Positions 1-53,046 of a stretch of 64,000 nucleotides of DNA are shown one piece after another. The position numbers and the translations under genes were made by a program. The notes beneath the pieces are model-generated. The model ran no database searches, had not been told where the DNA came from, and was given only the letters and a program-made list of their open reading frames with translations. The stretch is taken from positions 310,001 through 374,000 of the forward strand of contig NZ_JADKRR010000001.1 of the NCBI RefSeq assembly GCF_015351105.1, read 5' to 3'. This DNA is from Clavibacter sp. VKM Ac-2872. Lineage in GTDB: Bacteria > Actinomycetota > Actinomycetes > Actinomycetales > Microbacteriaceae. Numbering within the stretch: position 1 is the first letter of the stretch; every line of letters begins with the position of its first letter.

Positions 1-2
1 TT

Positions 3-413
3 GTCGAGGCGGTTAAACTGACGGAGACTGGAAATCGGTTTTTGGCGCGGGAGGATCCTCTCACCATAGAACTTTCGGAGATCATAAAGGTACTCAGTCG
101 CGAGTTCAGCGAACAGGAGCTTCCGGAAGATATGAGGCGACTTGCCCAAACGCTGCACACGCTTTTGGGCTCATGCAAAGTCCAAATATCAGCTCTCGCC
201 CCTCTGTTGAAACGTGGTCGCGAGGCCCGTGGCTCACATCCTCTTGATCTTTCTCCGTATGCGACGGTTCTTCAGTATTTGATTGACACGAAAGCTGCGG
301 CCGTCAAGGTTGCCTTGAGAAAAGCGAAGGCGCCAGTTGTTCTTTTGCCGGTGGAAGTTATTTTACCGAGCGGCTTTGACGCCGCTGATATGCCTAATGC
401 GCGATTAATCTGA
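3..413 (+). CDS. hypothetical protein, C-terminal part (5' end outside window)
   Basis: The frame is open from the first bases of the window (..VEAVKLTETGNRFLARE..) to a TGA at 411-413, so this is the C-terminal part of a longer protein. A TTG at 42 could start a 123-residue product but has no convincing ribosome-binding site. The stretch LTETGNRFLA resembles the wing of a winged-helix domain, but too little remains to name a family. The rest is mainly helical with many K, R and E residues. Codon use is more AT-rich than the core genes, which fits an acquired gene. It lies 124 bp upstream of the restriction-modification pair on the same strand, so a regulatory or defence role is possible but unproven. 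Confidence 0.5.
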   Translation, partial: VEAVKLTETGNRFLAREDPLTIELSEIIKVLSREFSEQELPEDMRRLAQTLHTLLGSCKVQISALAPLLKRGREARGSHPLDLSPYATVLQYLIDTKAAAVKVALRKAKAPVVLLPVEVILPSGFDAADMPNARLI

Positions 414-537
414 TAGTGGTCTGACCTGGAGAGTCGGTGATCTGACTCGCTCGCTTGCAGCTCAGTCGGATGTGCGATTGACCCTACTTGCGCGATTCGG
501 CTGCAACCGGAGCGTCGCCGACCGGTAGTCTTCGGCC

Positions 538-2229: not shown

Positions 2230-3362
2230 GCCCGTTTCTGCCCGTCGTACCGGTCGAGCTGTGCGCTGACCGCTTGCAACGTATCTTCCCTCGAGAAGGA
2301 TTCGACACCGTCTTCAGCAGCCCACTCGCGGCCGCCGCCGTCGCCGCGATGATCTATCTCGGCGCCGTCCACGACCCTGATGCCGACACCCAACGGTGGA
2401 TGCGACCTTCGATGGTGATGTGGCTGAACGACGCGGCCCTCGAACACGGCTCGGACGAGCAACGGGATGCCTGGTATGAGGCCGCGCTGGGTGGAAAGAA
2501 GCGTGTCGAAACGTTGTTCTCGACCTGGGGCGTCGACGGGAACCCGCGTTACGCGGACAACACCCGTGAGACGCTGCGCGACGAAACTCTTCCCAAGTGG
2601 CGTGAGAACGGTGCTGTCCTCACCCGCGGTGGCCTTCCCACATCCAGTTCTCTCCCGAGGTGGGCGTTGGAGAGCGCCTTCGCGGATCTCTTCGACCCGG
2701 ACCTCGAAGGCGAGGCGCTCGAGACGCAGATTGATTACTGGGTCGCCACGCACCTCAGCGCCACGGGGCGTCTCCGGGCAATGGGAGCTCGGCGCCGCTC
2801 GAGCACCATCGACGCCGTCTACGTCAACCTGCCTACTGGCGACACCCGTCAGCTCGAACCAGGCCTCGCCTCCGAGATCCTCAAGGGTGTCGTGGAGCAA
2901 TGGGCGAGGAACAAGCTCCGCGCACCCCTCGTTCTCACCATTTCCGAGCCCGGTGACAAGATCTACCTCGCCGACAGGCGCTCGCTCCAAACCATCGGCA
3001 TCGACATCGACCCCGGAAAGCTTCTACCTGACGCGCTCCTCGTTGACACGGAGGCCGAACCGCTTCAGTTCTGGGTCATCGAGGCGGTCGCGACAGATGG
3101 GCCCATCGACGAGCCCCGAAAGCAGCTGCTCCTCGATTGGGCTGATCAGCAAGGCATCCCACCAAACCAGTGCCATTTCCTCACCGCGTTCGAGTCTCGG
3201 CACCACCCAGCCGCTCGTCGTCGGCTCAAGGACCTTGCTAACGACACCTACGCCTGGTTCCTCGATGACCCTGGTAGCGAACTGGTGTGGCGCACCATTG
3301 AACAACCGCCTACCCCGGCGCACCTGGCGGCCCTCACCCTGATCTCCCGCCCGCCGGTCTAG
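2226..3362 (+). CDS. BsuBI/PstI-family type II restriction endonuclease
   Basis: A 378-residue protein is predicted from GTG 2226, which overlaps the methylase stop as GTGA. A longer in-frame ORF from 2157 would run inside the methylase gene and is less likely. The C-terminal part carries the signature of the BsuBI/PstI restriction-endonuclease family: ALLVD, then FWVIEAVATDGPIDEPRKQLL from about residue 284, which includes the acidic and basic residues of the PD-(D/E)XK-type core. The N-terminal 200 residues are probably the DNA-binding half. Members of this family recognise six-base sites such as CTGCAG, but specificity here is unknown. With the methylase it forms a complete type II restriction-modification system. 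Confidence 0.88.
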   Translation: MSPFLPVVPVELCADRLQRIFPREGFDTVFSSPLAAAAVAAMIYLGAVHDPDADTQRWMRPSMVMWLNDAALEHGSDEQRDAWYEAALGGKKRVETLFSTWGVDGNPRYADNTRETLRDETLPKWRENGAVLTRGGLPTSSSLPRWALESAFADLFDPDLEGEALETQIDYWVATHLSATGRLRAMGARRRSSTIDAVYVNLPTGDTRQLEPGLASEILKGVVEQWARNKLRAPLVLTISEPGDKIYLADRRSLQTIGIDIDPGKLLPDALLVDTEAEPLQFWVIEAVATDGPIDEPRKQLLLDWADQQGIPPNQCHFLTAFESRHHPAARRRLKDLANDTYAWFLDDPGSELVWRTIEQPPTPAHLAALTLISRPPV

Positions 3363-3442
3363 GACCAGACTGGGCAGCCATCGTCGTCGACAACAGGGGG
3401 ACGCACATGAGGGCTCGAGTGGCGGCCGACACCGTCTGATAC

Positions 3443-4021
3443 GTGTTCCGCACCGACTGCCAAGACGAGAAGTGGGCTTACATCGGTCAGAGCATGCGCA
3501 TGGATCCGGAGAACATGCGCATCTATTTCGGCAACGGATTCAATTTCCAGCAGGCTGTCGCAGACCGTGTAACCACCGGTTTGCAGAAAACCGTCCTTGC
3601 CGCCGCTTCGACACATCTAGAGCTGCCCTCCGTCGAGATGCTGCACATCGCTCGGGCCCGTGCAAAGGGAATCGCGTTGCTGAACGGAGATATCGGGGGC
3701 CCGACCGTTTCCCGTCCTCCAACGCCACTTGTTGTTACGGCTCCCGGAAGCGATGACGGCCCGGACCGACCCGAGAGCGTTCTACAAGTTCCTCAAACGC
3801 AACCGCGCGCTGGTCGAGCAAGCGATCCTGGACGCCTCCGCGGTCACGACCGACGCCTTCTACACATGGAGCGCGATCTCTTGGATGTGGAGGACCTGTC
3901 GCATGCCTGTCCCTCGTGCGGTTCCCCGCCCGGTGAGGTTTGCAGGACCAACGCACACTCGGCCGCGAAGCCGCACAACCCGTCGCGTAACCACCGGGCA
4001 CGACCTCGAGCGAGGAACTGA
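3443..4021 (+). CDS. hypothetical ORF, uncertain (overlaps frameshifted zinc-finger gene)
   Basis: A 192-residue reading frame begins at GTG 3443, just after an in-frame stop. The first 90 residues (FRTDCQDEKWAYIGQSMRMDPENMRIYFGNGFNFQQAV..) have plausible codon use and may be a real small gene. From about 3750 to 3880 codon quality collapses in this frame, while a different frame becomes strongly GC3-biased. The frame becomes convincing again at CPSCGSPPGEVC near its end. The stretch is therefore more likely two genes or gene remnants than one protein. No function is assigned. Confidence 0.35.
   Translation: MFRTDCQDEKWAYIGQSMRMDPENMRIYFGNGFNFQQAVADRVTTGLQKTVLAAASTHLELPSVEMLHIARARAKGIALLNGDIGGPTVSRPPTPLVVTAPGSDDGPDRPESVLQVPQTQPRAGRASDPGRLRGHDRRLLHMERDLLDVEDLSHACPSCGSPPGEVCRTNAHSAAKPHNPSRNHRARPRARN
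3753..4021 (+). pseudogene. small zinc-finger protein, frame interrupted near 3865-3890
   Basis: From ATG 3753 one frame has strongly coding third positions (MTARTDPRAFYKFLKRNRALVEQAILDASAVTTDAFYTW..) up to about 3870. The good codon pattern then moves to another frame, which encodes DLSHACPSCGSPPGEVCRTN and ends at TGA 4019-4021. The CxxC-x(5)-C spacing followed by H and R residues resembles small zinc-finger domains common in actinobacterial and phage proteins. The interval of 269 bp is one base short of a whole number of codons, as expected for a single-base loss. The lesion could be genuine or a sequencing error. Confidence 0.4.
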
Positions 4022-4041
4022 CTCGTCGGGTACGGGGTTGA

Positions 4042-5142
4042 CTACCCCGCCCCGACCTCCCGGCGGATCGCCGCCGCGAACCGGTCGATGTCGTCCTCGG
4101 TGGTGTCGAAGGAGCACATCCAGCGCACCTCGCGGCGGGCCGGGTCCCAGTCGTAGAAGCGGAACTCGCTGCGGAGGCGGTCCGCGACGCCCTCGGGGAG
4201 GATCGCGAACAGGCCGTTGGCCTGGGTCTCCTGCGTGAACTCGACGCCCTCCACGCCGTCGAGCGCGGCCCGGAGGCGCGCGGCCATGCCGTTCGCGTGG
4301 CGCGCGGAGCGGAGGTAGAGCGGCACGCCGTCGACCTCGGATCCGAGGAGCGCGAGCAGCTGCGCGCTTACGAACCGCATCTTCGAGGCGAGCTGCATGT
4401 TGAGCTTGCGGAGGTAGGTCAGCCCCTCGGAGGCCTCGGGGTCGAGGACGACGATCGCCTCGCCGTAGAGCAGGCCGTTCTTGGTGCCGCCGAAGCTCAC
4501 GACGTCGACGCCCGCGTCCGACGTGAAGGCGCGGAACGGCGCGTCCAGCGTGGCCGCCGCGTTCGAGAGGCGGGCGCCGTCCATGTGCAGGCGCATGCCG
4601 CGCGCGTGCGCGTGGTCGGCGATCGCCCGCACTTCGGCCGGCGTGTAGACGGTGCCGAGCTCCGTGGTCTGCGTGATGCTCACGGCGAGCGGCTGCGCGC
4701 GGTGCTCGTCGCCCCAGCCCCACGCCTCGCGGTCGATGAGCTCGGGCGTGAGCTTGCCGTCGTCGGTCGGCACCTGGAGCAGCTTGATGCCGCCGACGCG
4801 CTCGGGGGCGCCCCCCTCGTCCGTGTTGATGTGCGCGGTGGTCGCGCAGATCACCGCGCCCCAGCGCGGCAGCATCGAGAGGAGCCCGGTGACGTTCGCG
4901 CCCGTGCCGTTGAACACGGGGTACGCCTCGGCGCCGCGGCCGAAGTGCTCGCCCACGACCTCCTGGAGCCGTGCCGTGTAGGCATCTCCGCCGTACGCGA
5001 CCTGGTGCCCGCCGTTCGCGGCCGCGATCGCCTCGAGCACCTCGGGGTGGATCCCGGAGTAGTTGTCGGAGGCGAACCCGCGAGCGGCGGTGTCGTGGAG
5101 GCGGAGGGGGGAGGCGGGGGATGCGGCGTCGGCGTCGGTCAC
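4042..5142 (-). CDS. ltaE: low-specificity L-threonine aldolase (PLP-dependent)
   Basis: The enzyme cleaves L-threonine or L-allo-threonine to glycine and acetaldehyde in the cytoplasm. The 366-residue sequence has the family pattern of the beta-eliminating lyase/threonine aldolase fold: ASDNYSGIHPEVLEAI at the N terminus, the NGTGAN glycine-rich loop near residue 78, HMDGARLSNA near 186, and the PLP-binding lysine in SFGGTKNGLLYG (K221). GTG 5142 is preceded by GAGGATGG. The coding strand runs into the restriction-modification islet: the stop codon at 4042-4044 marks the islet boundary. The next gene upstream, a Nudix hydrolase, starts its coding end 45 bp away, and the two may be cotranscribed. 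Confidence 0.93.
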   Translation of the reverse strand: MTDADAASPASPLRLHDTAARGFASDNYSGIHPEVLEAIAAANGGHQVAYGGDAYTARLQEVVGEHFGRGAEAYPVFNGTGANVTGLLSMLPRWGAVICATTAHINTDEGGAPERVGGIKLLQVPTDDGKLTPELIDREAWGWGDEHRAQPLAVSITQTTELGTVYTPAEVRAIADHAHARGMRLHMDGARLSNAAATLDAPFRAFTSDAGVDVVSFGGTKNGLLYGEAIVVLDPEASEGLTYLRKLNMQLASKMRFVSAQLLALLGSEVDGVPLYLRSARHANGMAARLRAALDGVEGVEFTQETQANGLFAILPEGVADRLRSEFRFYDWDPARREVRWMCSFDTTEDDIDRFAAAIRREVGAG

Positions 5143-14392: not shown

Positions 14393-15183
14393 CGCGCGCC
14401 GTCCCGCGGCCCGCGCTCCGGGGCGCCCGCGCCCTCGTACGCGCGCTGCGGCATCTGCGTCGCGAGCTTGCCGCCGCTGACGTCGACGAGCGTGCCCGTG
14501 ATGTAGCCGGCGCGGTCGCTCGCGAGGAACACGAGGAGGTCGGCCACGTCGTCGGGTCGCTCCCACCGGCGGATGCTGAGGGTGTCGAGCAGGCGGTCCT
14601 GCGCGGGCTCCGGCATCTCGGCGAAGCCGTTCATGGCCGTCGGGATCATGCCGGGCGCGTACGCGTTGACGGTGATGCCCCACGGCCCGAGCTCGCTCGC
14701 GAGCACGCGCGTGAACTGCACGACCGCGGCCTTCGAGGCCCCGTACGCGGCCGCGCCGACGCTCGGGATGACGGCCGCGAACGACGCCGCGTTGATGATG
14801 CGCCCGCCTCCCGCCGCCTTCATGGCCGGGATGACGGCCTGCGAGAGCAGGAACACGCCGCCGACGTTCACGTCGAACGCGGCCTGGAAGCGCGCGGGCT
14901 CGAGCGTCTCGACCGACCCCTCGACGTTGATCCCGGCGTTGTTCACGAGGACGTCGACGCGCCCGGCCTCCTCGAGCACCTGCGCGACGGCGGCCTGCAC
15001 GGACGCCTGGTCGGTGACGTCGGCGACGATCGCGGTGATCCCGTCCGGCAGCGCGTCGCGGAAGCGGAGGTCGAGCCCGAAGACCCGGCACCCCTCGGCC
15101 AGGAAGCGCTCGGCGATGGCGCGGCCGATGCCCTGCGCGGCACCGGAGACGACGACGACCCTGTCGTGGAGGTCGATGAGCAT
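14389..15183 (-). CDS. SDR family sugar/alcohol dehydrogenase
   Basis: A 264-residue classical short-chain dehydrogenase. Seen: the cofactor motif SGAAQGIGRAIAERF (TGxxxGxG type), an acidic residue after beta-2 (GLDLRF) suggesting NAD preference, NNAGIN, the catalytic serine in NAASFAAVIPSVGAAAYGASKAAV, and the YxxxK pair. The C-terminal IxRWxxPDDVADLLVFLASDRAGYITG..VDVSGG is standard. It starts at ATG 15183, divergent from another SDR across 52 bp, and is followed by the SMP-30 lactonase with a 4-bp overlap. A sugar such as fuconate, rhamnose or galactose may be the substrate, but this is inference. Confidence 0.9.
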   Translation of the reverse strand: MLIDLHDRVVVVSGAAQGIGRAIAERFLAEGCRVFGLDLRFRDALPDGITAIVADVTDQASVQAAVAQVLEEAGRVDVLVNNAGINVEGSVETLEPARFQAAFDVNVGGVFLLSQAVIPAMKAAGGGRIINAASFAAVIPSVGAAAYGASKAAVVQFTRVLASELGPWGITVNAYAPGMIPTAMNGFAEMPEPAQDRLLDTLSIRRWERPDDVADLLVFLASDRAGYITGTLVDVSGGKLATQMPQRAYEGAGAPERGPRDGAR

Positions 15184-15235
15184 GCGTGTTCCCCACAGTC
15201 CTAATAGCGTTTCCCTCAACGTAGGGGAGACCGCC

Positions 15236-16018
15236 ATGTCCGGAGCACGGACGCACGACCAGCACGACGACCACGACCACGACGCGCCTGGGGAGGGATC
15301 GGCGAGCCCGCGGACGCTGTGGATCAGCGGCGCGGGATCCGGCGTCGGCCGCGCGACCGCCGTCGCCGCGGCCCGCGACGGCTGGCGCATCGTGCTCTCG
15401 GGCCGTCGCCGGGAGCCGCTCGAGGAGACGCGCGCGCTGGTGGACGACCTCGGATCCACCGCGGTCGTCGCCCCGCTCGACGTGACCGACGACGCCGCGC
15501 TCGCCGCCGTGGTCGCGGGCCTCGACCGGCTCGACGGCGTCGTGGTCGCGGCCGGCCTCAACGCCCCGCGCCGCTCCTGGGCCGACCAGGACGTCGCCGA
15601 CTTCGACCGCATCCTCGCGACCAACCTCACCGGCCCGGCGCACCAGGTGGCCGCCGCCCTCCCGCTGCTGCGGGCGTCCGGCGGCACGGTCGTGCTCGTC
15701 TCCTCGTACGCCGCGTGGACCCACTCGCCGGGCGCGGGCGTCGCCTACAGCGCCTCGAAGACAGCGCTGTCGACGCTCGTGCGCGACCTCAACGCGCAGG
15801 AGGCGGGCGCCGGGATCCGCGCCACGCACCTGTGCCCGGGCACCATCGACAGCGACTTCCTCGCCCTCCGGCCGACCGTCCCCGACGCCGCCGAGCGCGC
15901 CGCGATGCTCACGCCCGACGACGTGGCCCGCGCCGCGATGTTCGTGCTCGCGTCGCCGCCGCACGTGCGGATCGACGAGCTCGTGCTCTCTCCGATGTCG
16001 CAGCGCGGCGGGTTCTGA
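15236..16018 (+). CDS. SDR family oxidoreductase, gene bordering islet A
   Basis: A 260-residue short-chain dehydrogenase/reductase is predicted from ATG 15236 (preceded by GGGGAGA). It has a His/Asp-rich N-terminal tail of about 25 residues, the cofactor motif ISGAGSGVGRATAVAAA, AAGLNAP in place of NNAG, the catalytic VSSYAAWTHSPGAGVAYSASKTAL, and CPGTIDSDF. The glycine motif followed by SGRRREPL suggests NADP preference. Its last 26 bp, encoding MSQRGGF and stop, are repeated perfectly at 17622-17648, where they no longer belong to a gene. This gene is therefore the attachment point of islet A. Confidence 0.88.
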   Translation: MSGARTHDQHDDHDHDAPGEGSASPRTLWISGAGSGVGRATAVAAARDGWRIVLSGRRREPLEETRALVDDLGSTAVVAPLDVTDDAALAAVVAGLDRLDGVVVAAGLNAPRRSWADQDVADFDRILATNLTGPAHQVAAALPLLRASGGTVVLVSSYAAWTHSPGAGVAYSASKTALSTLVRDLNAQEAGAGIRATHLCPGTIDSDFLALRPTVPDAAERAAMLTPDDVARAAMFVLASPPHVRIDELVLSPMSQRGGF

Positions 16019-16019: not shown

Positions 16020-16130
16020 CCGCGGCCTGCGGGTACAGCGCGCGCCCGGTGTCGCGGCGTCACTTCGACATGCGACGAATCTCGTGCTTTCGGAAGTGAA
16101 CCTCACCGGTCCGTGCGGGCCCGACGTGGA

Positions 16131-16162
16131 CATCCCGGGGGATGGCGGCATCCCCCGGGATG
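16131..16162 (+). terminator. strong hairpin downstream of the SDR gene
   Basis: Perfect 13-bp stem, 16131-16143 with 16150-16162, loop GGCGGC. It sits between the SDR stop codon and the convergent islet-A genes, so it can serve both strands. Confidence 0.6.
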
Positions 16163-16199
16163 GAATGGTAAGCGGAGCCTAGCCGGTGCGGGCCTCTCG

Positions 16200-16394
16200 T
16201 CAGCGGTGATGCGCCGGGCTGCCGTCCCGCGGTGATCCGGACTGGCTACGGATGAACCAGGCGACGGCATATCCGATGAAGATCACTGCCGCTGCGATCG
16301 CACCGAGGGCCCACGGGTTGATATCGGTGACTGCAGCGACGCCGATTGCCACCAGGGTGGGGACCAGCCAGCCGTAGTTCCTGAGTGCCCTCAT
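16200..16394 (-). CDS. small two-helix membrane protein of islet A (possible immunity partner)
   Basis: A 64-residue protein is predicted from ATG 16394 (MRALRNYGWLVPTLVAIGVAAVTDINPWALGAIAAAVIFIGYAVAWFIRSQS..) with two membrane helices and a charged C-terminal tail. The ATG overlaps the stop of the upstream secreted-protein gene as ATGA, so the two are translationally coupled. Tiny membrane proteins coupled to secreted proteins are often immunity proteins. That role is inference, because I recognise no family. Confidence 0.65.
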   Translation of the reverse strand: MRALRNYGWLVPTLVAIGVAAVTDINPWALGAIAAAVIFIGYAVAWFIRSQSGSPRDGSPAHHR

Positions 16395-17271
16395 GCGCAG
16401 TTCTTCTTGTCTACCTTGTGGATGCCCTTGCCGATGGGCACGATCTTGAGCTGATAGCACCCCGTGTTCTGCACGCTCGCGTTTCGGAATATCGAGGTGA
16501 CGCCACCCCAGATGTTCTGCACGGTGGGCACGCCGACATAGCCACAAAGCCCCTGGATGATGTAGCCGACGCTAGGGATCTTGCCTGCGCCCACACATCC
16601 GCCAGCGAGGGCTGTACCGAGTGTCGACAGACTGACCGCGGAGATGATCTTCACCTGAATGCCGGTCATGTTCCAATACGCTCCGGGGCCGTCCGAGGCA
16701 CCCGCCAAGCCGACGGTGATCGTGGGATCGGCGACGACCGGGTACGCGATCTCGCTTCCATGGATGGTCTGCGTCAAGACATCGCCGTCAAGGCTGTAGC
16801 TCGTACGCACCTTTTCCCCATTCGCGTCGACGGCCCAAGGTTCGTCGATCTCCGCGAGTGCGATCCGTGTGCCGCCCGCGTCGATCGCCACGATATATCC
16901 ACCATCTTGAGGCACGAGCGTCGCCCCAGCAGGGAGGTCGACCCGGAAGTCAGTACTCATCGCCCCGCGATCCATGCGACTCATCACCCGCACCCCGGCG
17001 GGCAGGACGGTCGTGGAGAAGACGTCTGCTGAGGGAGCGAGCCCGACCTCGAAGTCCCCGAAGCCGGCCACCGCAGCATCCTCATCCACGTCGACAGAGA
17101 CGCCCAGGTCAAGCGACTGCGTATCGACGGGGTCGAATCCCGCAGCGCGCTGGGCTGAGTCGAAGAGCCTATCTTCCTCCGAAATGGCGTTGGCGGGCGT
17201 GGCGCCGAAACCTACCAACGCTGTGGTGAAGAGTGCTGGACGGCCATGGATGAAGCTGTTCGCTGGATCAT
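16391..17271 (-). CDS. secreted protein of islet A, signal-peptide frame shifted by one base
   Basis: The mature region (about 270 residues from ISEEDRLFDSAQRAAG) has the actinobacterial extracellular pattern AMSTDFRVDLPAGATLVPQDGGYIVAID .. SEIAYPVVADPTITVG. A cysteine-containing C-terminal domain follows (AGGCVGAGKIPSVGYIIQGLCGYVG .. NTGCYQLKIVPIGKGIHKVDKKNCA) with four cysteines. Just before it ALFTTALVGFGATPANA is a good hydrophobic core and AxA signal-peptidase site, but no start codon lies in frame. MIQRTASSMAV (ATG 17271) sits one frame away and would give a normal signal peptide after a one-base correction around 17233-17239. The 881-bp span is one base short of whole codons. Function unknown; an exported toxin or bacteriocin-like protein is a reasonable hypothesis. 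Confidence 0.6.
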
Positions 17272-17621
17272 GTTTCCCCCCATGTTCCCGTGAACCACTG
17301 TGTTCCCGGTACAGCACAGTAAAGGGCCACGGGGCGACGGTGTCCATGCGACCTCGGGATGTCCCGCGCGACCCCATTGGTGTGCTATCGACCCTCCATG
17401 GTCCGCGGTGCGGCGCACCTCGCGGATGGAAGAAGAGAGGGCGGATGGGCCTCACGGATCTGCGTGGCGCTGATGAGAGCGGAAAGCGTGCGTCTAGCCT
17501 CGGCTGCCTCAACGATGGGGTCGGGGCCGCTGGCCTCAACGCCGCGCGCTGTTCCGAGCGGGAGCGAGACCTCGCGGAGTCGCACCGCAACGGGACGACC
17601 ATCCGCATGCGGTGCTGTCCT
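17272..17621. other. 350 bp without a convincing gene, distal part of islet A
   Basis: It probably contains the promoter of the secreted-protein gene near 17290-17340. I see short GC-rich frames on both strands, but none has a ribosome-binding site or a recognisable product. No repeat or RNA structure was recognised. Confidence 0.4.
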
Positions 17622-17648
17622 CGATGTCGCAGCGCGGCGGGTTCTGAC
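17622..17648 (+). repeat. 27-bp direct repeat, distal copy (displaced SDR 3' end)
   Basis: This is identical to 15993-16019. Read in the SDR frame it encodes MSQRGGF and TGA, preceded by VLSS where the intact gene has VLSP. No SDR body lies upstream, so it is a remnant of a gene end left at the far border of islet A. Confidence 0.8.
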
Positions 17649-45632: not shown

Positions 45633-45641
45633 TCGAATCCC

Positions 45642-45684
45642 CTACCGCAGCATCCAGACGATCGATCGGATGTCGCCCGCCAGC
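45642..45684 (-). repeat. displaced 3' end of an epoxide hydrolase gene (distal border of islet B)
   Basis: On the minus strand these 43 bases encode LAGDIRSIVWMLR and a TAG stop. They align without gaps to 47822-47864, the end of the intact epoxide hydrolase gene (LADDITAFLRTLR, TAG), with about 33 of 43 identical. No other part of such a gene lies here. Confidence 0.6.
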
Positions 45685-45794
45685 CGTACCAAAGTCGAGC
45701 ACATAGGCACCGCCAGCGATGCGAATTAATAGAGGCTGCCAACGCGGCTGATTCGATTCGCTGACCCGTCGATTCATTGGGGTATAACTAAATT

Positions 45795-46619
45795 ATGGGT
45801 AGAAGGAAGGCCGCAGAGCGTCAGCGTCAAACGCACCGGGCATGTCTCTTCTGCGGCGCTAAGCCGCTTACCGACGAGCACATGCTACCAAAGTGGCTTG
45901 CCGACAAAGTAGGGCACGTGCCGGGAGATACAAACACTTGGCGTAAAAACGTTCCTAGCTCAGGGGGTGCTTTTTCTGTCCTAAAGCAGGTTCCGCAGAT
46001 TCCGTTCTTGCGACAGGCGGTGAAGATTGTTTGCTTCCCGTGTAACAGCGGTTGGATGTCGGGGCTGGAGTCGGCCACGAAAAGCATAATCTCCGCAACC
46101 ATGGTTGGATCACCACGGCTGTTTTCCTCTTCGGATCGCAAGCGCTTCGTCAGATGGGCCATTAAGACCACCATGATTCGCGGCGCCAAGGAGACGGGAT
46201 GTGCTGCCGCCTATCCTGACGAGCACCGGTCATTATTAAGAGACGGGGCAGCGCCCTTGCCTGGGTGGCACGTTTGCATTGGCTTGACGAAGAGCGCAAA
46301 GCTTTGGACGACTCACTGGAGTTTTTCGTCATCTGCAAGTGATGACCTTGAGGCCGTCGGCGCCATCTTGTGCACAATTCGTATCTTCAAATTGCTTGTA
46401 GTTGTCGTTTTCGCATCCCCCTGCGAAGGCGCCGAAGAGACGCGTCTGGCCATTGAGGAGGACGGTAAGCTAGTGTGCTTGAGCGATAAGGCCCAAGGGG
46501 TTAAGTTTCTCGGCAATGACCGCCTTTTAAGTGACGATGAGGTCAGTTTCTATGCGGAGCTGTTTCGACACTTATACGGGCGCGCTATCTCGTCCGGTCC
46601 GTACCATTTAAGGCATTGA
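45795..46619 (+). CDS. HNH-nuclease-like zinc protein of islet B
   Basis: A 274-residue protein starts at ATG 45795. There is no strong ribosome-binding site, but TATAACT lies just upstream, so a leaderless transcript is possible. The N terminus has CLFCG (C17, C20), LTDEHMLPKWL (H29) and, after 50 residues, VCFPCNSGWMSGLE (C80, C83, N84). This CxxC-EH-CxxCN layout is typical of HNH-type endonuclease domains. The C-terminal 180 residues are not recognised. Codon use is AT-rich. A nuclease role in phage or plasmid defence is inferred. Confidence 0.65.
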   Translation: MGRRKAAERQRQTHRACLFCGAKPLTDEHMLPKWLADKVGHVPGDTNTWRKNVPSSGGAFSVLKQVPQIPFLRQAVKIVCFPCNSGWMSGLESATKSIISATMVGSPRLFSSSDRKRFVRWAIKTTMIRGAKETGCAAAYPDEHRSLLRDGAAPLPGWHVCIGLTKSAKLWTTHWSFSSSASDDLEAVGAILCTIRIFKLLVVVVFASPCEGAEETRLAIEEDGKLVCLSDKAQGVKFLGNDRLLSDDEVSFYAELFRHLYGRAISSGPYHLRH

Positions 46620-46779
46620 TAAGACGCAACGCATCCAAATGGTGCCTCCCTGGTTAGCTTCCATCGGCACCTCCACGAGAAATATTTGAAGCCGCGGAGC
46701 CGGTGCATTGCATCAGAACTGATTAGGCTGCATCATCTAGGCTTTGTGTTGAACGATCGAACAGCTGCTCCAACTTGTT

Positions 46780-47424
46780 CTACGGCGACACTTCAACCAT
46801 GACGGCACTGAACCGCGTTTTGCTGCCCGCCGATTGCGCATACAGCTCGCATCCCGTAACCCAAAGGGGGCGGATGTGACTCGGTCCGACCCGCGCCCGA
46901 CTGGCTGCGTTAGCCATGGGCTTTCGTATTGCTTCTCTTACGGCCGCAGCGCTTTTAGGCGCATCTGGCCCTAGCCAGTAAAGCAATACGCGCTTGTATC
47001 CCTTTACGTGAGTGCCGTGATCCTGTAGGTCGCGGAGCTTCTCCGTATCTTCTTTGAGCTTTACTGCTGCGTATCTACCAACTTCCAGAAGTAGCTGTTC
47101 GTCCTGCGGCGCTCCAGAAGGGGAATGCAATGCAAGATCGACGCGTTTTGGATTGCCGCCGGTGGCGCTAAATGGCACTTCCCACTGAATGCTGCGACCA
47201 TGTAGTGACGGTGACATCAAGAGGTGCTGATAAAAGAATTGAACTAGCGTCACCTCGTAAAAGTCCTGCTTGGTGGCAGGGAGGCCCGGACGCTGGTGAG
47301 TTAAGGCAAAGAGATCTGTTGCAGCTCTTTGGGCAGCTGGCCCTAGTAATTCCATGACCCGCCTCTCGTCGGGGTCGCCATTTCGGGGGCGCCCCCTCTC
47401 GTAGCGTTGCAAAAAAGGTCGCAT
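46780..47424 (-). CDS. uncharacterised islet-B protein, possible PD-(D/E)XK-like fold
   Basis: A 214-residue protein starts at ATG 47424 with AGGA upstream. The middle reads WEVPFSATGGNPKRVDLALHSPSGAPQDEQLLLEVGRYAAVKLKEDTEKLRDL. An aspartate in RVDLAL followed by a glutamate in LLLEVG and lysines recalls the core of PD-(D/E)XK nucleases, though the expected ExK is not exact. The remainder is unrecognised. It is convergent with the HNH-like gene, and the two are the only genes of the islet. Function uncertain. Confidence 0.5.
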   Translation of the reverse strand: MRPFLQRYERGRPRNGDPDERRVMELLGPAAQRAATDLFALTHQRPGLPATKQDFYEVTLVQFFYQHLLMSPSLHGRSIQWEVPFSATGGNPKRVDLALHSPSGAPQDEQLLLEVGRYAAVKLKEDTEKLRDLQDHGTHVKGYKRVLLYWLGPDAPKSAAAVREAIRKPMANAASRARVGPSHIRPLWVTGCELYAQSAGSKTRFSAVMVEVSP

Positions 47425-47821
47425 TGTGTGTCCTAAGTGTCAGATGCGTATTTCTCCAAGGCTAGGGCATTGCGGGTGCGTACGGGGCCCCCGTTCGGGC
47501 CGGCTGCGCAGCTCGCGTTCTGGTTTAAGGTGTGCGTGACAACGGCGTCAATCTCAACGTGATTTCATTCGCGATAACAAGTCGTAGCATGTCGACCGCC
47601 CTGTTAGGGAGGCGGTGGGCTTCGTGCGCACCGGTCATCTAGGCACTCAGCCCAAAGACGCTTTTGCAATCGATTGCTCGTCGATTATTAAACGTCATGG
47701 CATGTGCCGTCGGGGTGCCGCCCTCGAGGGTGCGCTCCTCTATTCAACTTGGACGCGGGGGCACCCACAGGTGGTCAAAGAGTGGCGATGTTTAAGGGCT
47801 GTTGTTGTGTCCACGGCCCCG
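47425..47821. other. AT-richer intergenic part of islet B
   Basis: This 397 bp lies between the minus-strand islet gene and the stop codon of the epoxide hydrolase gene. It holds the promoter region for 46780-47424 and several AT-rich stretches. A plus-strand frame runs through it into the antisense of the hydrolase gene but looks spurious. No RNA gene recognised. Confidence 0.4.
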
Positions 47822-48946
47822 CTACCGCAGCGTCCGCAGGAACGCCGTGATGTCGTCCGCCAGCAGCCCCGGCTCCTCGTGCGGCGCGAAGTGGCCGCCG
47901 CGCGGCATGGTCGTGTAGCGGACGATGTCGTAGGTGCGCTCGGCCCAGCTCCGCGGCGGATGCACCAGGTCGTGCGGGAAGACGGCGACCGCTGTCGGCA
48001 CCCGCACGCGCTCCACCGGCGCGGTGCGTCCGGAGCCGTACGCGAAGTACGGGCGGAGCGAGGTGCCGATGGATCCGGTGAACCAGTAGAGGGACGCCAG
48101 CGTCAGCAGGTGGTCGTCGCTGAAGGCCCGGGAGACGTCGCCGCCGCAGTCGCTCCACGCGCGGTGCTTCTCGAGGATCCACGACAGCAGCCCCACTGGA
48201 GAGTCCTGCAGCGCGGGCGCGAGGGTGAGCGGACGCGTCTGCTGCTGGTGCTCGTAGCCGCCCTCGGCTGCCTCCCACGCGCGCACCTCGTCTACGTGCG
48301 CGCGCTCCTCGTCCGTGAGCGTCGCCGCGTCGAGGTCGCGAGGTGCAGCAACCGCCATCAGGTGGATCCCCGCGACCGCCTCCGGATGCGCCTCCGCCAG
48401 CCGCGACGTGATCCCCGCGCCGAGGTCGCCGCCGTGCGCCGCGTACCGCGCGAAGCCCAGCTCCTCGGTCATCAACCGGTGCCAGAGCTCATGCGTCGGC
48501 TCGTTCATCCGCGGCCGCTGCGGCGAGAACGGGAAGCCGGGGAGCGCGGGGACGATCACGGTGACGGAGTCTCCCGGGTCGCCGCCGGAGCGCGACGGCT
48601 GGGACAGCCGCTCGGCGAGCGGCACCATCTCCAGCGCGGAGCTCGGCCAGCCGTTCGTGAGCACGATCGGGAGCCCGCCGGATCGCTCCGCCTCGAAGCG
48701 CAGGTACGAGACCGGCGTGCCGTCGAGGTCGGCGACCGCCCACGGCAGCGCGCGGATCTCGCGCTCGCGCGCCCGCCAGTCGAAGCCGTCGGCCCACACG
48801 GCGGCGAGGCGGCGCAGCGTCGCCTGGTCCGTGCCGGCCTCCCACGGCTCGACCGGCCACTCCGGCGCCCAGCGGGTGCGGCTGATCCGGTCGCGCAGGT
48901 CGTCGAGATCGGCGTCGGTGACGTGCAGGGGGAGCGGGTGGGTCAC
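47822..48946 (-). CDS. epoxide hydrolase (EHN domain, alpha/beta fold)
   Basis: A 374-residue enzyme starts at ATG 48946. The N-terminal EHN domain (DADLDDLRDRISRTRWAPEWP..WEAGTDQATLRRLAAVWADGFDWRAREREI) is typical of microsomal-type epoxide hydrolases. NGWPSSALEMVPLAERL is the HGWPGS oxyanion motif with N for H. AAHGGDLGAGI holds the nucleophile aspartate, and RGGHFAPHEEP the catalytic histidine. It hydrolyses epoxides to diols, perhaps plant lipids. It is flanked by islet B on its 3' side and a remnant of an ABC permease gene on its 5' side. Confidence 0.9.
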   Translation of the reverse strand: MTHPLPLHVTDADLDDLRDRISRTRWAPEWPVEPWEAGTDQATLRRLAAVWADGFDWRAREREIRALPWAVADLDGTPVSYLRFEAERSGGLPIVLTNGWPSSALEMVPLAERLSQPSRSGGDPGDSVTVIVPALPGFPFSPQRPRMNEPTHELWHRLMTEELGFARYAAHGGDLGAGITSRLAEAHPEAVAGIHLMAVAAPRDLDAATLTDEERAHVDEVRAWEAAEGGYEHQQQTRPLTLAPALQDSPVGLLSWILEKHRAWSDCGGDVSRAFSDDHLLTLASLYWFTGSIGTSLRPYFAYGSGRTAPVERVRVPTAVAVFPHDLVHPPRSWAERTYDIVRYTTMPRGGHFAPHEEPGLLADDITAFLRTLR

Positions 48947-49008
48947 GGGGGTCCTGACGTGGCGGGCGGGCGCGGTCCCCTCATGGTCCCGCGTCGCCGA
49001 CGCGGCGG

Positions 49009-49164
49009 CTACGTCCGCCGCCGCCTCGCCATCACCGCGCGCTGCAGCAGCACGAAGACCAGCAGGATCCCGCCCGTGATGATGGTGGTCGCCTCAGGCG
49101 GGATGCCGCCGTCGCGCGTGATGAGCACGTTCATGAGGCCCAGCACGAGGGCGCCGACGACCGA
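49009..49164 (-). pseudogene. displaced 3' end of the ABC permease gene (distal border of islet C)
   Basis: These 156 bp encode GALVLGLMNVLITRDGGIPPEATTIITGGILLVFVLLQRAVMARRRRT plus stop and match 51988-52143 at 152 of 156 positions without gaps. Similarity ends abruptly at 49164/49165 and at the stop codon. It is a fragment of the permease gene now 2.8 kb away, preserved near the epoxide hydrolase promoter. Confidence 0.85.
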
Positions 49165-51987
49165 TATGAAGAACGCCACGGCGCAGCACCACAAGCGCGC
49201 TAAGCGAGCCTGGCGTCGTGATGACGACGGCCAATCGAACCCTGTGCAGACGGGACGGCACATACGATGTCGCCCGCTGAGGCTCAAGGGCTGACCTCTC
49301 CCCCTCCCCGCCGCCGCAACCCGGAGCCGGCTCGAGGCTCAGCTCATTTGAGCCATCCGTGCAACAGCTGGTGAAATCCCTTCCAGTTCGATAAGCGATT
49401 AACGATACGCGAGCTAAGGCTGCCGGATGGCCCTCGTGAATCCGGCGGCGAAGAGTGCAGTGAGGGCCCATCCTGTTAGCGTCAAGAAGACTCCAACAGT
49501 GGCTACGAACTGTCCGCTTGCAGTGGCCGTCACCCGACACGCGGTCCCCACGCTTGTTCGAACTAGTGGTATAGCCACGTCCACTGCAACTTGTAGGATT
49601 TGTACGTCAGTGCATCGCGTCGCTGTCGCGGCTCCGGTTTGAGTTAGGGCACCGGCGTTAAGAAATGCCACAATCAGAGAAACTGTGATAACTCCTAGCA
49701 CGCCGATCAAGGCGCGCCAAGGCTGGTATCCGTAGCCGATGCATACTCCCGTGATCAGCAGCCACAACTTTGCCGGCTTCGACAATCCTCCGCGCCTAAG
49801 TTGATCATTGCGCTGTCTCATCAGGGCCCGGCGAGCGTCATTATCGTGGCCTTCGGTCCGGGCCACCAATGCGAGCTGCTGGTAGGGCTGGGCCCCGTAC
49901 TCCGTCGTTCCCTTCTGAATCGCATCCAGCCATTTAAGGAAAGGAACGCCCGTATAGCTTTTGTACGACAAACCGCCGAGGACCCACTTGGTTTCGCGCC
50001 CCGCCTGTTCTAAATTATCTGCATTAAGGTGTAGGGATCCTCGCACGGTAGTATTTGCAAGACTGATGGTGACTGAGTCGCCTGCGGTCCTTGAGGCGAC
50101 CTTGGAGCACAGGACCAAATTCCCGCGGATTTCCGCGCCGTCGATGCGTAATGCGGAGCCTTCGCCTTGCACTATGGAAAGGCCGCTCAAGTCGACGTCT
50201 GCAGTGATTGTGACACGAGATAAGTCAACTACGGCACTATCGTTCGATCCGAAAGCGGAGGCTTCCCGTCTCGCCGCAATACCATCAGTAATGGTAGCGC
50301 CGACCGCGACAAGGGCCGGTCCTGAGCCATTTTGCATTGATGATTCATGTAGCACTAATTGTCCCGTGATTACGGCGCTAGTAAAGCGTACAACGCCGTG
50401 TGCGCCATCGCCTTTCGCGTCGAATCCGTCATCAAGGAAAACATCTCCATTGATTGCGGCACAGTCGGCCAAGAGCGCGGTACCAATTGAGTTGGAAATA
50501 GTTGCACCGCTCATTGCAAGCTGGCCTTCGATTTTAATGCTATGAAATCGGATTGCTGCGTCGTCGTCCTTAGCGATTGCACTGAATCCATTGTCCAAAA
50601 ACGCACCCATGCCGATGAAAGCGCCATCTGCGTAGAGCGCCGGACCGCTTTCGTTAGAAAGGTGAGCCCCTCTCAGCGCAAGCTGGCCTGCAATCTTCGT
50701 GCCGACGAGGCGAACGCATCCCCCGCCCCGCTTCCGGATGCGCTAAAGCCACTACCAAACAGTAAAGCTCCCGCAATTTGTGCATCGTCCAGCAAGAGGG
50801 CGGGTCCGTCTGCGTCGCTTATATCTGAATTTGTCAGATCAACTTCGCGAAGGAAGCGCGCACCCATAAAGCGCACCCCGCCACCGACGCTTTTTGCGGT
50901 AGCAACAAAAGCACTATTAAGATATACGCCTCCATCAAAAGTTGCACTGTTAGCGTGCAAGGCCAACCCTTCCGGGTTGTGTATAGTTGCGCCACTTGCT
51001 ACAAATTGACCGCGAATGTGAGAGTGTGGAAGGCGCACTGTTCCCTCGCGACCTCGCCCAATCGCCGTAAAACTTTCGTCGATAAAAAGGGCGCCCATGT
51101 CGGCGTTGTCGCATGACAAAGCGGGGCCAGCTAGGTTTATCAGCTTGGCTCCAGACATTCCGAGTTGGCCTGTTATTTGCGCTCCAAGAAAGCGCACTGC
51201 GCTGGTTGGTCCGTGCCCGCGAGCTTCAAAGCCGTCGTTTAAAAATGCATCGCCATCAATTACGCAACCGTCTGCATTTAAGGCCGCCGCGGTCGTATTA
51301 GTTATTTTTACTTTAGAGAGATTTAATTGTCCCCGGATGCGTGCATCTTGTAGGATCACGGATTCCGGGCGACCTGCCAGTGGGGCCAGTATCACGGACG
51401 CCGCCATGTTGAGCCGTGCGATGTCGGACGAAACTGCAGTTAGGCCGCCCGCGAAGAGGCATGCAGTAAAGTTAATCGGTAACAGGGTTGATACATGGTT
51501 TAAGTCCAGCAGGCCCTCAATGCGTGCGCCAGAAACTTGAATACCGTGAGGGTCGATCGTATTAAGCGGAACATGCAGCCCTCGAAGGACTTCGCGAATA
51601 AAGGTCGCGCGAAGGGCGCCTTCTGCGCCCCAAGTGCTTAACTCCGATTCATCAACATTGAGCACGTCAAGGGTGTTTGTGAAAATCAGCGCATGGCCTC
51701 CTGCTAAACTGTTTAACAGTGCGAGTTCATTCCTCGAGGGGGTAAGGGGCATGACGCGGCTCCTAATATCAAGTCGGGAAACTAGGGCAAATATCCTCGG
51801 CGCAAGGCGCAAATAATGGAATCCTCGCCCGTGCCGATCATCTCCCGAAGTCTTCTAAAGGATGCATGTAACAGAATCCGAGTGCCCCTCTCCGAAATGC
51901 GGTCCAGAAAGGGCTGGGTAGGATATTTCTGTATGCTAGCCATAAACTTAGGACTGTCGGCCGAAATACTGCCCCCACTTATGGGGT
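49165..51987. mobile_element. accessory islet C inserted at the 3' end of the ABC permease gene
   Basis: The 2.8-kb segment is AT-rich compared with the flanks and lies between the intact permease stop codon (51988-51990) and the 156-bp duplicated gene end. It carries one large gene for a beta-helix membrane protein. No recombinase gene or terminal inverted repeats are visible. A short inverted repeat CCCCA/TGGGG sits at 51973-51986, next to the border. Confidence 0.65.
49414..51752 (-). pseudogene. beta-helix repeat membrane protein of islet C, one-base frameshift at 50720-50724
   Basis: Start ATG 51752 has AGGAG seven bases upstream. The protein consists of at least seven repeats of about 54 residues (VRFxGAxITGQLxMSGAxLxNxxGPALxADxAxIxGxxFLDxGFxAxGxG), predicted to form a right-handed beta-helix. 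A cytoplasmic-type segment AQPYQQLALVARTEGHDNDARRALMRQRN and about three membrane helices at the C terminus follow. The frame breaks at a run of five Cs. Adding one base joins ASGSGAG to GCVRLVGTKIAGQLALRGAHL and restores the repeat. The corrected protein would have about 779 residues. Similar proteins in Streptomyces are loosely annotated as membrane-associated oxidoreductases; true function unknown. Confidence 0.75.
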
Positions 51988-52143
51988 CTACGTCCGCCGC
52001 CGCCTCGCCATCACCGCGCGCTGCAGCAGCACGAAGACCAGCAGGATCCCGCCGGTGATGATGGTGGTCGCCTCAGGCGGGATGCCGCCGTCGCGCGTGA
52101 TGAGCACGTTCATGAGGCCGAGCACGAGCGCGCCCACGACCGA
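51988..52143 (-). repeat. 156-bp repeat, proximal copy (intact permease 3' end)
   Basis: This is identical to 49009-49164 except for four substitutions. Both copies start at the permease stop codon. The pair brackets islet C. Confidence 0.85.
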
Positions 52144-53046
52144 GCCGAGCACGAAGCCGACGCCGCCGGTGAGGAGGGTGCCGCCGATCACGGTCGCGGC
52201 GATCGCGTCGAGCTCCCAGCCGATGCCGGTGATGTTCTGCGCGCTGCCGAGCCGGGCCGTGTAGATCACCGAGGCGAGACCGGCGAGCGTGCCGCTGATC
52301 ACGTAGACGGCGAGCTTGGTGCGTCGCACGGGCAGGCCCATGAGCGCGGCCGACTGCTCGGATCCACCGGTCGCGTACACGGTGCGGCCGAGGCGCGTGC
52401 GGTGCAGCACGAAGAACGCGACGGCCACCACGACGAGGGCGATGAGCACGCCGGGTGTCGTGACGACGTCGTTCACCTTCGGGCCGTCGACGACCTTCAT
52501 GTTCGTGGCGAGCGACCGCAGCGGGGACTCGTCGTCGAGCCGCTCGGGCACGGTGCTGAGGATGGAGGCGAGCCCGCGGCCGAGGAACATCATCGCGAGC
52601 GTCGCGATGAACGGCTGCACGTCGAAGAACTGGATCAGCACGCCCGACACGACGCCCGATGCCGTGCCGATGAGGATCATCAGCACCATCACCACCCACG
52701 GGTTCCAGCCGGCGTTCGCGAGCAGCACGCCCGCGACGCTGCTGACGGCGACGATCGCGCCGACGGACAGGTCGATGCCGCCCGTGAGGATCACGAACGT
52801 GAGTCCCACGGCGAGCACGATGACGTGCGCGTTGTTGATGAGCAGGTTCGACAGCGTCGCGGCCTGCAGGATCCGGCCGTACGCGATCTCGCCGTAGGCC
52901 AGCATCGCCAGCAGGATCACCAGGGCGGCGACCGTCGGAAGCGAGTCGAGGCGGAGGCGCATCCGTCGGCGGGGCGGCCGGGGCGCGGTGCCGGGTGCCG
53001 GCGCGGGCGTCGGGGTCAGGGGCGGCTGGATCGTCGTGGCGCTCAT
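51988..53046 (-). CDS. CUT2 sugar ABC transporter permease (YjfF-like)
   Basis: A 352-residue permease with eight or more helices starts at ATG 53046 (ATGA overlap with the upstream permease). VGLTFVILTGGIDLSVGAIVAVSSVAGVLLA is the RbsC-family signature. The N-terminal 30 residues are Pro/Arg-rich. It resembles YjfF, the second permease of the E. coli galactofuranose importer YtfQRT-YjfF. Its last 156 bp are duplicated at 49009-49164, and islet C begins at its stop codon. Confidence 0.9.
   Translation of the reverse strand: MSATTIQPPLTPTPAPAPGTAPRPPRRRMRLRLDSLPTVAALVILLAMLAYGEIAYGRILQAATLSNLLINNAHVIVLAVGLTFVILTGGIDLSVGAIVAVSSVAGVLLANAGWNPWVVMVLMILIGTASGVVSGVLIQFFDVQPFIATLAMMFLGRGLASILSTVPERLDDESPLRSLATNMKVVDGPKVNDVVTTPGVLIALVVVAVAFFVLHRTRLGRTVYATGGSEQSAALMGLPVRRTKLAVYVISGTLAGLASVIYTARLGSAQNITGIGWELDAIAATVIGGTLLTGGVGFVLGSVVGALVLGLMNVLITRDGGIPPEATTIITGGILLVFVLLQRAVMARRRRT

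What the first reader, a model, noticed from the sequence alone, without database searches (positions are those of the whole stretch)
45642..52143. Integrase-less islets that start at a core gene's stop codon and duplicate its 3' end
Three separate accessory islets in this window share one architecture. Each starts exactly at the stop codon of a core gene, and each ends on its far side with a partial second copy of that gene's 3' end: 27 bp identical (15993/17622), about 33 of 43 bp (45642/47822), and 152 of 156 bp (49009/51988). A fourth islet (1-4041) also abuts a stop codon. The gene-attached copy is always complete, and the remnant lies next to the former downstream neighbour. That is the footprint of integration into gene 3' ends with restoration of the target. 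Yet the islets are only 1.6-2.8 kb, carry conflict-type cargo, and encode no recombinase. Mobilisation in trans, or homology-facilitated illegitimate recombination during DNA uptake, are candidate mechanisms. Three cases in 64 kb suggest a general route for acquiring small defence cassettes.
Basis: partly seen in the sequence, partly recalled or inferred. Interest (0 to 1): 0.8.

Follow-up and report, generated by a model that had tools for sequence, protein, structure and literature searches.

The report
Gene-end anchored islets leaving displaced stubs
Small accessory gene cassettes in this bacterium sit right behind the stop codons of ordinary genes and push a leftover copy of each gene's old end to their far side, a scar that fits DNA brought in from relatives by recombination anchored in the gene itself rather than by a mobile element's own enzyme.

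Summary
All three duplicated gene ends are real (152/156, 34/45, and 34/37 bp with 27 identical in a row), and sister species carry single-copy sites. The fourth islet also has a stub: 246 bp, 2.2 kb outside the window. A repeat scan of 854 kb of this genome and 819 kb of a relative found 14 direct and 0 inverted repeat pairs. Nine pairs (8 loci) include a protein gene's end: all 3', none 5'. One further pair abuts a start codon from outside; another is a tRNA-Arg island with its own integrase.

No islet gene scanned matched a recombinase, the duplicated ends share no core beyond chance, and stubs measure 37-345 bp. At two loci a sister species has the same gene-islet junction without a repeat; at two loci the attached gene has a new stop codon while the stub keeps the old one. 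This favours gene-anchored one-sided recombination (homology-facilitated illegitimate recombination). Cargo is mixed: R-M, hipBA, secreted-protein pairs, MFS, MauE.

Precedents exist: R-M 'insertion with long target duplication' and T6SS immunity arrays. I call it a new variant of a known kind. Most clean insertions (67 of 82) lack the footprint, and donors of the window's own islets were not found.

The parts
1..4041 (.). Right part of a 6,212-bp islet (G000:C1:307830-314041) with an Eco57I-like methyltransferase (538-2229 +) and a BsuBI/PstI-type restriction endonuclease (2226-3362 +); outside the window also a GmrSD_N-domain gene, and a RelA/SpoT-like gene (weak, below Pfam's cut-off) whose end is at 413
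4042..5142 (-). Anchor gene (Beta_elim_lyase family), complete; its 3' 246 bp recur as a stub at G000:C1:307584-307829, outside the window
15176..16018 (+). Anchor gene, short-chain dehydrogenase (SDR); start uncertain
16020..17611 (.). SDR islet, 1.6 kb: secreted-type protein of the '...YPVVADP...NCA' family (16391-17347 -, start uncertain) and a small membrane-type protein (16200-16394 -). A homologous islet (77% DNA identity over 1,081 aligned positions) stands at the same gene end in G009 with a 105-bp stub
17612..17648 (+). Stub of the SDR 3' end (34/37), next to the former downstream neighbour
45640..45684 (-). Stub of the epoxide-hydrolase (EH) 3' end (34/45), next to the glyoxalase-family gene
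45685..47819 (.). EH islet, 2.1 kb, 55% G+C: HNH-like ORF 45795-46619 + (no Pfam hit; HNH taken from one annotated distant phage relative), unknown ORF 46780-47424 -
47822..48946 (-). Anchor gene, epoxide hydrolase (EHN + alpha/beta hydrolase), complete
49009..49164 (-). Stub of the permease 3' end (152/156), next to the EH gene
49165..51987 (.). Permease islet, 2.8 kb, 55% G+C: two ORFs that look like parts of one pentapeptide/beta-helix-like membrane protein (49414-50610 - and 50673-51812 -; Pfam matches below cut-off)
51988..52962 (-). Anchor gene, ABC-transporter permease (BPD_transp_2), complete; start uncertain

Best explanation
The islets were carried in on DNA from related strains in which the same anchor gene is followed by accessory genes. 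Homologous pairing within the anchor gene joined that side cleanly. The result is: anchor gene completed with the incoming 3' end and stop codon, then the islet, then a stub of the recipient's old gene end, then the old neighbour. The 3'-end bias follows because this arrangement keeps anchor gene, promoter and downstream neighbour intact. The islet begins at the stop codon because that is where homology between incoming and resident DNA ends. Shown: single-copy sites, stubs, the 3' bias, repeat-free gene-islet alleles at two loci, changed stop codons at two loci, no recombinase match. Inferred: the route of DNA entry, the illegitimate joint itself, and that the window's own islets arose the same way.
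For: (1) Single-copy sites in relatives at all three window loci and at further loci: ogt-like and lyase genes in G005, HAD in G000, the G003 locus in G008. (2) Self-scan of 854 + 819 kb: 9 pairs at protein gene ends (8 loci), all 3', none 5'; 0 inverted pairs. (3) HAD locus: G017 has HAD-sec-g2-MFS'-MFSnb with no repeat; G016 has HAD-sec-g2-345-bp HAD stub-MFSnb; the two align without a break from inside HAD through the stop codon and islet (2,554 columns, 87%), to 78 bp before the stub. (4) X94 locus (a membrane-protein gene, no Pfam hit; 'KUP' in my notes): G005 has gene-secreted gene-membrane gene with no stub; G000 aligns to it (3,114 columns, 87%) from the anchor through the secreted gene, then has other membrane genes, a broken piece of a second secreted gene and a 48-bp stub. 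(5) Stop codons: at the ogt-like gene the attached copy ends in TAG, stub and single G005 copy in TGA; at the hip locus G000, G005 and G009 end GGG-TGA while G000's stub keeps GCC-TAG, the form of 8 of the 11 hip-free genomes. (6) No recombinase in the islet genes scanned; the tRNA-Arg element found by the same scan carries a Phage_integrase gene.
Against: No donor was found for the window's own islets: in 18 genus genomes the EH and permease islets occur only here, the SDR islet here and in G009, where it also has a stub; the HNH-like protein and the REase were found in 1 and 2 other genomes of 398 in the family. G005's HAD islet is MFS', and no HAD-MFS' pair without a stub was seen in the HAD regions of the 18 genomes (two of them short stretches), so G017's allele cannot be its donor. 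78 bp between islet and stub in G016 are unexplained. Nearest-relative profiles showed no clear donor tract. Microhomology at the far joint could not be tested. G016/G017 could be read in reverse, with G017 having lost its stub. Stop codons are not uniform: G003 (hip plus stub) ends GCC-TGA and G006 (hip, no stub) GCC-TAG. One scan pair (G005, 87 bp) abuts a start codon from outside; counting it as a 5' case makes 8 to 1.
Confidence: 0.62

Rival explanations
1. [quoted passage not shown]
For: The footprint (repeats of the order of 100 bp, variable length, single copy in a related genome) is what was described for R-M units in Helicobacter (passages), and one islet here is an R-M unit with a 246-bp repeat. 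The permease gene copy shows no excess divergence beyond normal variation.
Against: It does not predict different stop codons on the two copies (ogt-like and hip loci), nor sister-species alleles with the same gene-islet junction and no repeat, nor a restriction to 3' ends apart from selection.
Confidence: 0.2
2. Site-specific integration at gene 3' ends by a recombinase acting in trans, the element carrying a gene-end copy that restores the target.
For: Gene 3' ends with restored reading frames are classic integrase targets (recalled). The genome has such an element: a 9.7-kb tRNA-Arg island with a phage-type integrase and a 48-bp perfect repeat.
Against: No recombinase match in the islet genes scanned; the duplicated ends of ten loci share no longer words than random gene ends do; no common islet termini; at HAD, two different islets have stubs of 345 bp (G016) and 78 bp (G005).
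Confidence: 0.07
3. The stub-bearing state is old and the empty sites are later deletions between the two repeats.
For: Recombination between direct repeats gives a precise single-copy site; the hip islet occurs in 7 of 18 genomes, 4 with a stub, and the SDR islet is shared by G000 and G009 at 77%.
Against: The EH and permease islets occur in 1 of 18 genus genomes, so insertion is simpler there; it also leaves the origin of the repeats unexplained.
Confidence: 0.08

Closest known systems
Insertion with long (and variable) target duplication of restriction-modification units (Nobusato et al. 2000 Gene 259:99; Furuta et al. 2010 NAR 38:2428; neither read; known here through passages in PMC1643837, PMC3031569, PMC4978471 and PMC3874152)
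   Same: Repeats of the order of 100 bp and variable length around an inserted unit, single copy in a related genome, no known mobile element; one of our islets is an R-M unit.
   Different: Here the repeat is a gene 3' end at each gene-end locus found, with the complete copy on one side; most cargo is not R-M; repeat-free sister alleles and swapped stop codons point to a gene-anchored exchange.
Homology-facilitated illegitimate recombination (HFIR) in naturally transformable bacteria (de Vries & Wackernagel 2002; Prudhomme 2002; Meier & Wackernagel 2003; seen only as citations in PMC2884548 and PMC5361080)
   Same: Homology on one side anchors incoming DNA and the other end is joined without homology; foreign DNA is gained.
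   Different: Described from laboratory transformations; competence, RecA dependence and microhomology are untested here; the joint lies upstream of the anchor's stop codon and so leaves a stub.
Sequential displacement of T6SS effector-immunity modules in Vibrio cholerae (Kirchberger et al. 2017, PMC5361080, passages read)
   Same: Same proposed mechanism; arrays with a displaced 3' end of the older gene. The X94 locus looks like such an array (secreted gene, broken older one, extra membrane genes, gene stub).
   Different: The displaced end belongs to unrelated genes, not to the effector; no T6SS was looked for; cargo includes TA, R-M and transporter genes.
Integrase-less horizontal-transfer hotspots driven by recombination in flanking core genes (Oliveira et al. 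2017, PMC5635113, passages read)
   Same: Core genes beside the variable segment serve as homology for accessory DNA exchange.
   Different: Their model uses flanking core genes; here homology on one side only is inferred, which leaves the diagnostic stub.

Membership tests
Homology-facilitated illegitimate recombination | Incoming DNA shares homology with the recipient on one side of the new segment | tested here: met
   Met at two loci: G016/G017 align through HAD, stop codon and islet; G000/G005 through the X94 anchor and secreted gene. For the window's own islets no donor allele was found.
Homology-facilitated illegitimate recombination | Non-homologous joint with little or no microhomology at the other end | tested here: inconclusive
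   The far joint lies inside the anchor gene; the donor sequence beyond it is unknown, and in G016 78 bp are unexplained.
Homology-facilitated illegitimate recombination | Depends on DNA uptake and RecA | not testable with these tools
   Needs an experiment.
Insertion with long target duplication | Direct repeats of ~100 bp and variable length, single copy in relatives | tested here: met
   Stubs of 37-345 bp; single-copy sites.
Insertion with long target duplication | Both copies derive from the recipient's target | tested here: not met
   Different stop codons at the ogt-like and hip loci. Not resolved for the three window loci.
Insertion with long target duplication | Inserted unit is a restriction-modification system | tested here: inconclusive
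   One islet carries R-M genes; none was recognised in the other islets scanned.
Integrase-borne island at a gene 3' end | Encodes its own site-specific recombinase | tested here: not met
   No recombinase match in the called islet genes of at least 60 codons at ten loci (G016's secreted gene and G009's islet judged by homologues). Positive control: the tRNA-Arg element's Phage_integrase gene is found.
Integrase-borne island at a gene 3' end | Fixed core/repeat length at a given target | tested here: not met
   HAD 3' end: 345 bp in G016, 78 bp in G005, different islets. SDR: 105 bp in G009, 37 bp in G000, but these islets are homologous, so decay could explain that difference.
T6SS effector-immunity displacement arrays | Displaced 3' end of an older effector and orphan immunity genes behind a new module | tested here: inconclusive
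   X94 locus shows a broken older secreted gene and two membrane-type genes; effector and immunity roles are inferred; no T6SS examined.

The most novel reading that the evidence does not exclude
Gene 3' ends act as docking sites through which a whole actinobacterial genus exchanges small cassettes (secreted effector plus membrane partner, toxin-antitoxin, R-M, transporters) with no mobile element: the anchor gene supplies the homology, the cassette brings a new stop codon, and the displaced stub records each event, so successive events can stack into arrays.
Probability: 0.35. Interest if true: 0.7.

Novelty: new variant of a known kind. Interest (0 to 1): 0.52.

Why it matters
Many small accessory islets carry no integrase, and how they enter genomes is usually guessed. 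A gene stub on the far side of an islet is a readable scar: it says which side was anchored by homology, which DNA was resident, and where the joint fell. Repeat-free sister alleles make the donor arrangement visible, so one-sided recombination in nature could be counted and dated from genomes alone. It also offers a mechanism for the old 'insertion with long target duplication' of R-M systems.

Tried and rejected
Donor search for the window's islets. Islet DNA against the 18 genus genomes: EH and permease islets in this genome alone, SDR islet in this genome and G009. HNH-like protein and REase against 398 family genomes: 2 and 3 genomes with a hit, this genome being one of each. Plasmids (HNH-like, one pentapeptide ORF) and phages (REase, HNH-like) gave only distant relatives, best identity 24-38%. 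EH gene against plasmids: best 96% covered at 70%, no lead. A genome-contig scan with the SDR-islet protein gave 2 weak relatives. So no donor.

Ancestry switch around the islets: nearest-relative profile in 500-bp windows, inconclusive. G005 identity profile: no donor tract visible.

Common core or ends: the duplicated gene ends of ten loci share pairwise words of mean length 7.8, random gene ends 7.8 (60 draws); islet termini gave only 9-13-bp matches apart from the orthologous hip pair.

Rows not counted as gene-end events (5 of 14): X446959 (60 bp; one copy overlaps the last 15 bp of a gene, below my 20-bp rule, and holds a hairpin-like sequence), X453877 (2.2-kb tandem paralogues), X480158 (tRNA-Arg), Y313735 (87 bp; abuts a called start codon from outside), Y354339 (inside one gene). 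Y196194 (57-bp overlap, 286-bp insert, mostly intergenic) was left out as ambiguous. The EH pair lies below that scan's threshold and is not among the 9.

Gene calls in scripts come from a simple codon-usage caller written here, so start codons are uncertain. The label 'KUP' in my notes was recalled and had no Pfam support, so the report says X94.

Literature: HFIR terms, one-sided recombination, Clavibacter islands, long target duplication, hotspots. No title or abstract start listed there described gene-3'-end stubs beside islets in this genus. Papers were seen as listings or passages only.
Full report
What was checked. The window is G000:C1:310001-374000 of a 3.51-Mb genome with 17 same-genus relatives held. 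The genus is probably Clavibacter: relative G008 carries a homologue of the HNH-like protein at C3:124626-125390, nearly the place of one in a C. capsici plasmid record, NZ_CP012575.1:124623-125393. This is an inference.

The three repeats are real. Gene copy against far copy: SDR 34/37 with 27 identical in a row, epoxide hydrolase (EH) 34/45, permease 152/156. In 854 kb of this genome nothing besides the gene and the stub reaches the EH score. Relatives give the single-copy sites, joining the gene end to the stub's neighbour: permease in 7 of 15 relatives fetched, EH in G016, G004 and G002, SDR in G013 and G017. The fourth islet, 6.2 kb with a BsuBI/PstI-type R-M pair, has a 246-bp stub just left of the window.

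Unbiased scan. I took 854 kb of this genome and 819 kb of G005 and listed repeats of at least 35 bp and 85% identity, 250-15,000 bp apart. There were 9 + 5 direct pairs and 0 + 0 inverted pairs. Nine pairs, at eight loci, have one copy at a protein gene end: all 3', none 5' (two-sided sign probability for eight loci 0.008). The other five are a tandem paralogue pair, a tRNA-Arg island with a phage-type integrase, a pSAM2-type replication gene and an FtsK-type gene, one pair inside a gene, one ambiguous pair touching the last 15 bp of a gene, and one pair that abuts a called start codon from outside; if that last one is counted as a 5' case the tally is 8 to 1 (two-sided 0.04). In the pairwise comparison 7 of 82 clean insertions have a repeat of at least 35 bp: 5 at protein-gene 3' ends, one the tRNA, one ambiguous; 8 have overlaps of 10-34 bp and 67 none. 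The footprint is therefore a minority one, and in this genome its protein-gene cases lie in the first 454 kb of the 854 kb scanned. Relatives added G003 (112 bp, single copy in G008), G009 (105 bp, SDR) and G016 (345 bp, HAD).

Direction and source. At the HAD gene I saw these arrangements: HAD next to MFSnb in G000, G013 and G003; HAD-sec-g2-MFS'-MFSnb without any repeat in G017; HAD-sec-g2-HAD stub-MFSnb in G016; HAD-MFS'-HAD stub-MFSnb in G005; the other 12 genomes have no full-length MFSnb in the stretch fetched. G016 and G017 align unbroken from HAD across the stop codon and through the islet, so the gene-islet junction of G016 was not made by the event that made its stub; it was inherited or imported together with the gene end. 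The X94 anchor shows the same between G005 (no stub) and G000 (stub), with in addition a broken older secreted gene in G000. At the hip locus G000, G005 and G009 share an islet more than 97% identical, with a stub; G003 has an 82% version with a stub; G001, G006 and G017 have diverged hipBA without a comparable stub; 11 genomes show no hipBA in the stretch seen. In G000, G005 and G009, and at the ogt-like gene, the attached copy has a stop codon different from the stub's or from the islet-free form; the stub, read for G000 and G005, keeps the form common in genomes without the islet. G003 and G006 do not fit this neatly.

Mechanism. These facts fit incoming DNA anchored by homology in the gene on one side and joined illegitimately into the resident gene on the other. 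They fit poorly with an integrase: none matched in the islet genes scanned, no shared core or islet ends, stub length varies at one and the same gene. They also fit poorly with a pure target duplication. Against: no donor for the window's own islets; the G005 HAD case needs an allele not seen; the ancestry profiles were uninformative; 78 bp in G016 are unexplained; reversed order of events in G016/G017 is not excluded.

Cargo. R-M with a GmrSD_N-domain gene, HipA/HipB, an HNH-like protein named from one annotated distant phage relative, a pentapeptide-like protein (below cut-off), an Rv2525c-like glycoside-hydrolase-like protein with a peptidoglycan-binding domain, an MFS exporter, a MauE-domain protein, a response-regulator-type gene in G003, and a family of secreted-type proteins with a shared middle and differing C-termini, one of them DUF2599, beside small membrane-type proteins. 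The last resemble effector-immunity pairs; that is inference. So 'defence cassettes' is too narrow.

What is known. R-M units that insert with long, variable target duplications of the order of 100 bp are in print (PMC3874152, PMC3031569, PMC1643837, PMC4978471, passages; the originals were not read). HFIR has been proposed for displaced effector ends in V. cholerae (PMC5361080, passages) and for dimorphic loci (PMC2884548, passages). Recombination in flanking core genes has been proposed for integrase-less hotspots (PMC5635113, passages). What this case adds is the use of gene 3' ends at unrelated genes, the stub as a scar, mixed cargo, and repeat-free sister alleles.

Noticed in passing
window 16391-17347 (-); G000:C1:93913-94779; G005:C1:169547-170446; G009, G016 and G017 islets: A family of secreted-type proteins with a shared '...L.Q...YPVVADP' stretch and different C-termini (hydrophobic '...NCA' or DUF2599), beside small membrane-type proteins; looks like a polymorphic secreted effector with a membrane partner. 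Recurs in gene-end islets.
   Followed up: partly
G000:C1:92732-94901: Behind the X94 anchor gene: intact secreted gene, membrane gene, broken C-terminal piece of a second secreted gene, another small membrane gene, then a stub of the anchor. Looks like stacked displacement events.
   Followed up: partly
G000:C1:480158-489926: 9.7-kb element at tRNA-Arg with phage-type integrase, pSAM2-type replication initiator and FtsK-type gene and a 48-bp perfect repeat; AICE-like.
   Followed up: partly
G000:C1:401488-403373 and orthologues: hipBA islet more than 97% identical between G000, G005 and G009, whose anchor gene is about 92-93% identical, with much more diverged hipBA in the same slot in G001, G006 and G017.
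   Followed up: partly
window 49414-51812: The pentapeptide-like protein of the permease islet is split over two ORFs; possibly decayed.
   Followed up: no
G000:C1:276339-287397: 11-kb segment starting at the stop codon of an ABC-ATPase-like gene, with a 2,275-codon ORF and two similar downstream ORFs; only an 11-bp overlap repeat.
   Followed up: no
downstream of window 4042-5142 in relatives: The slot behind the lyase-family gene differs in most species (near-empty in G009, G011, G014): an integration hotspot.
   Followed up: partly
G005:C1:373735-373820 and 374373-374459: 87-bp repeat pair, one copy just upstream of a called start codon; the only hint of a 5'-side case in the scan.
   Followed up: no
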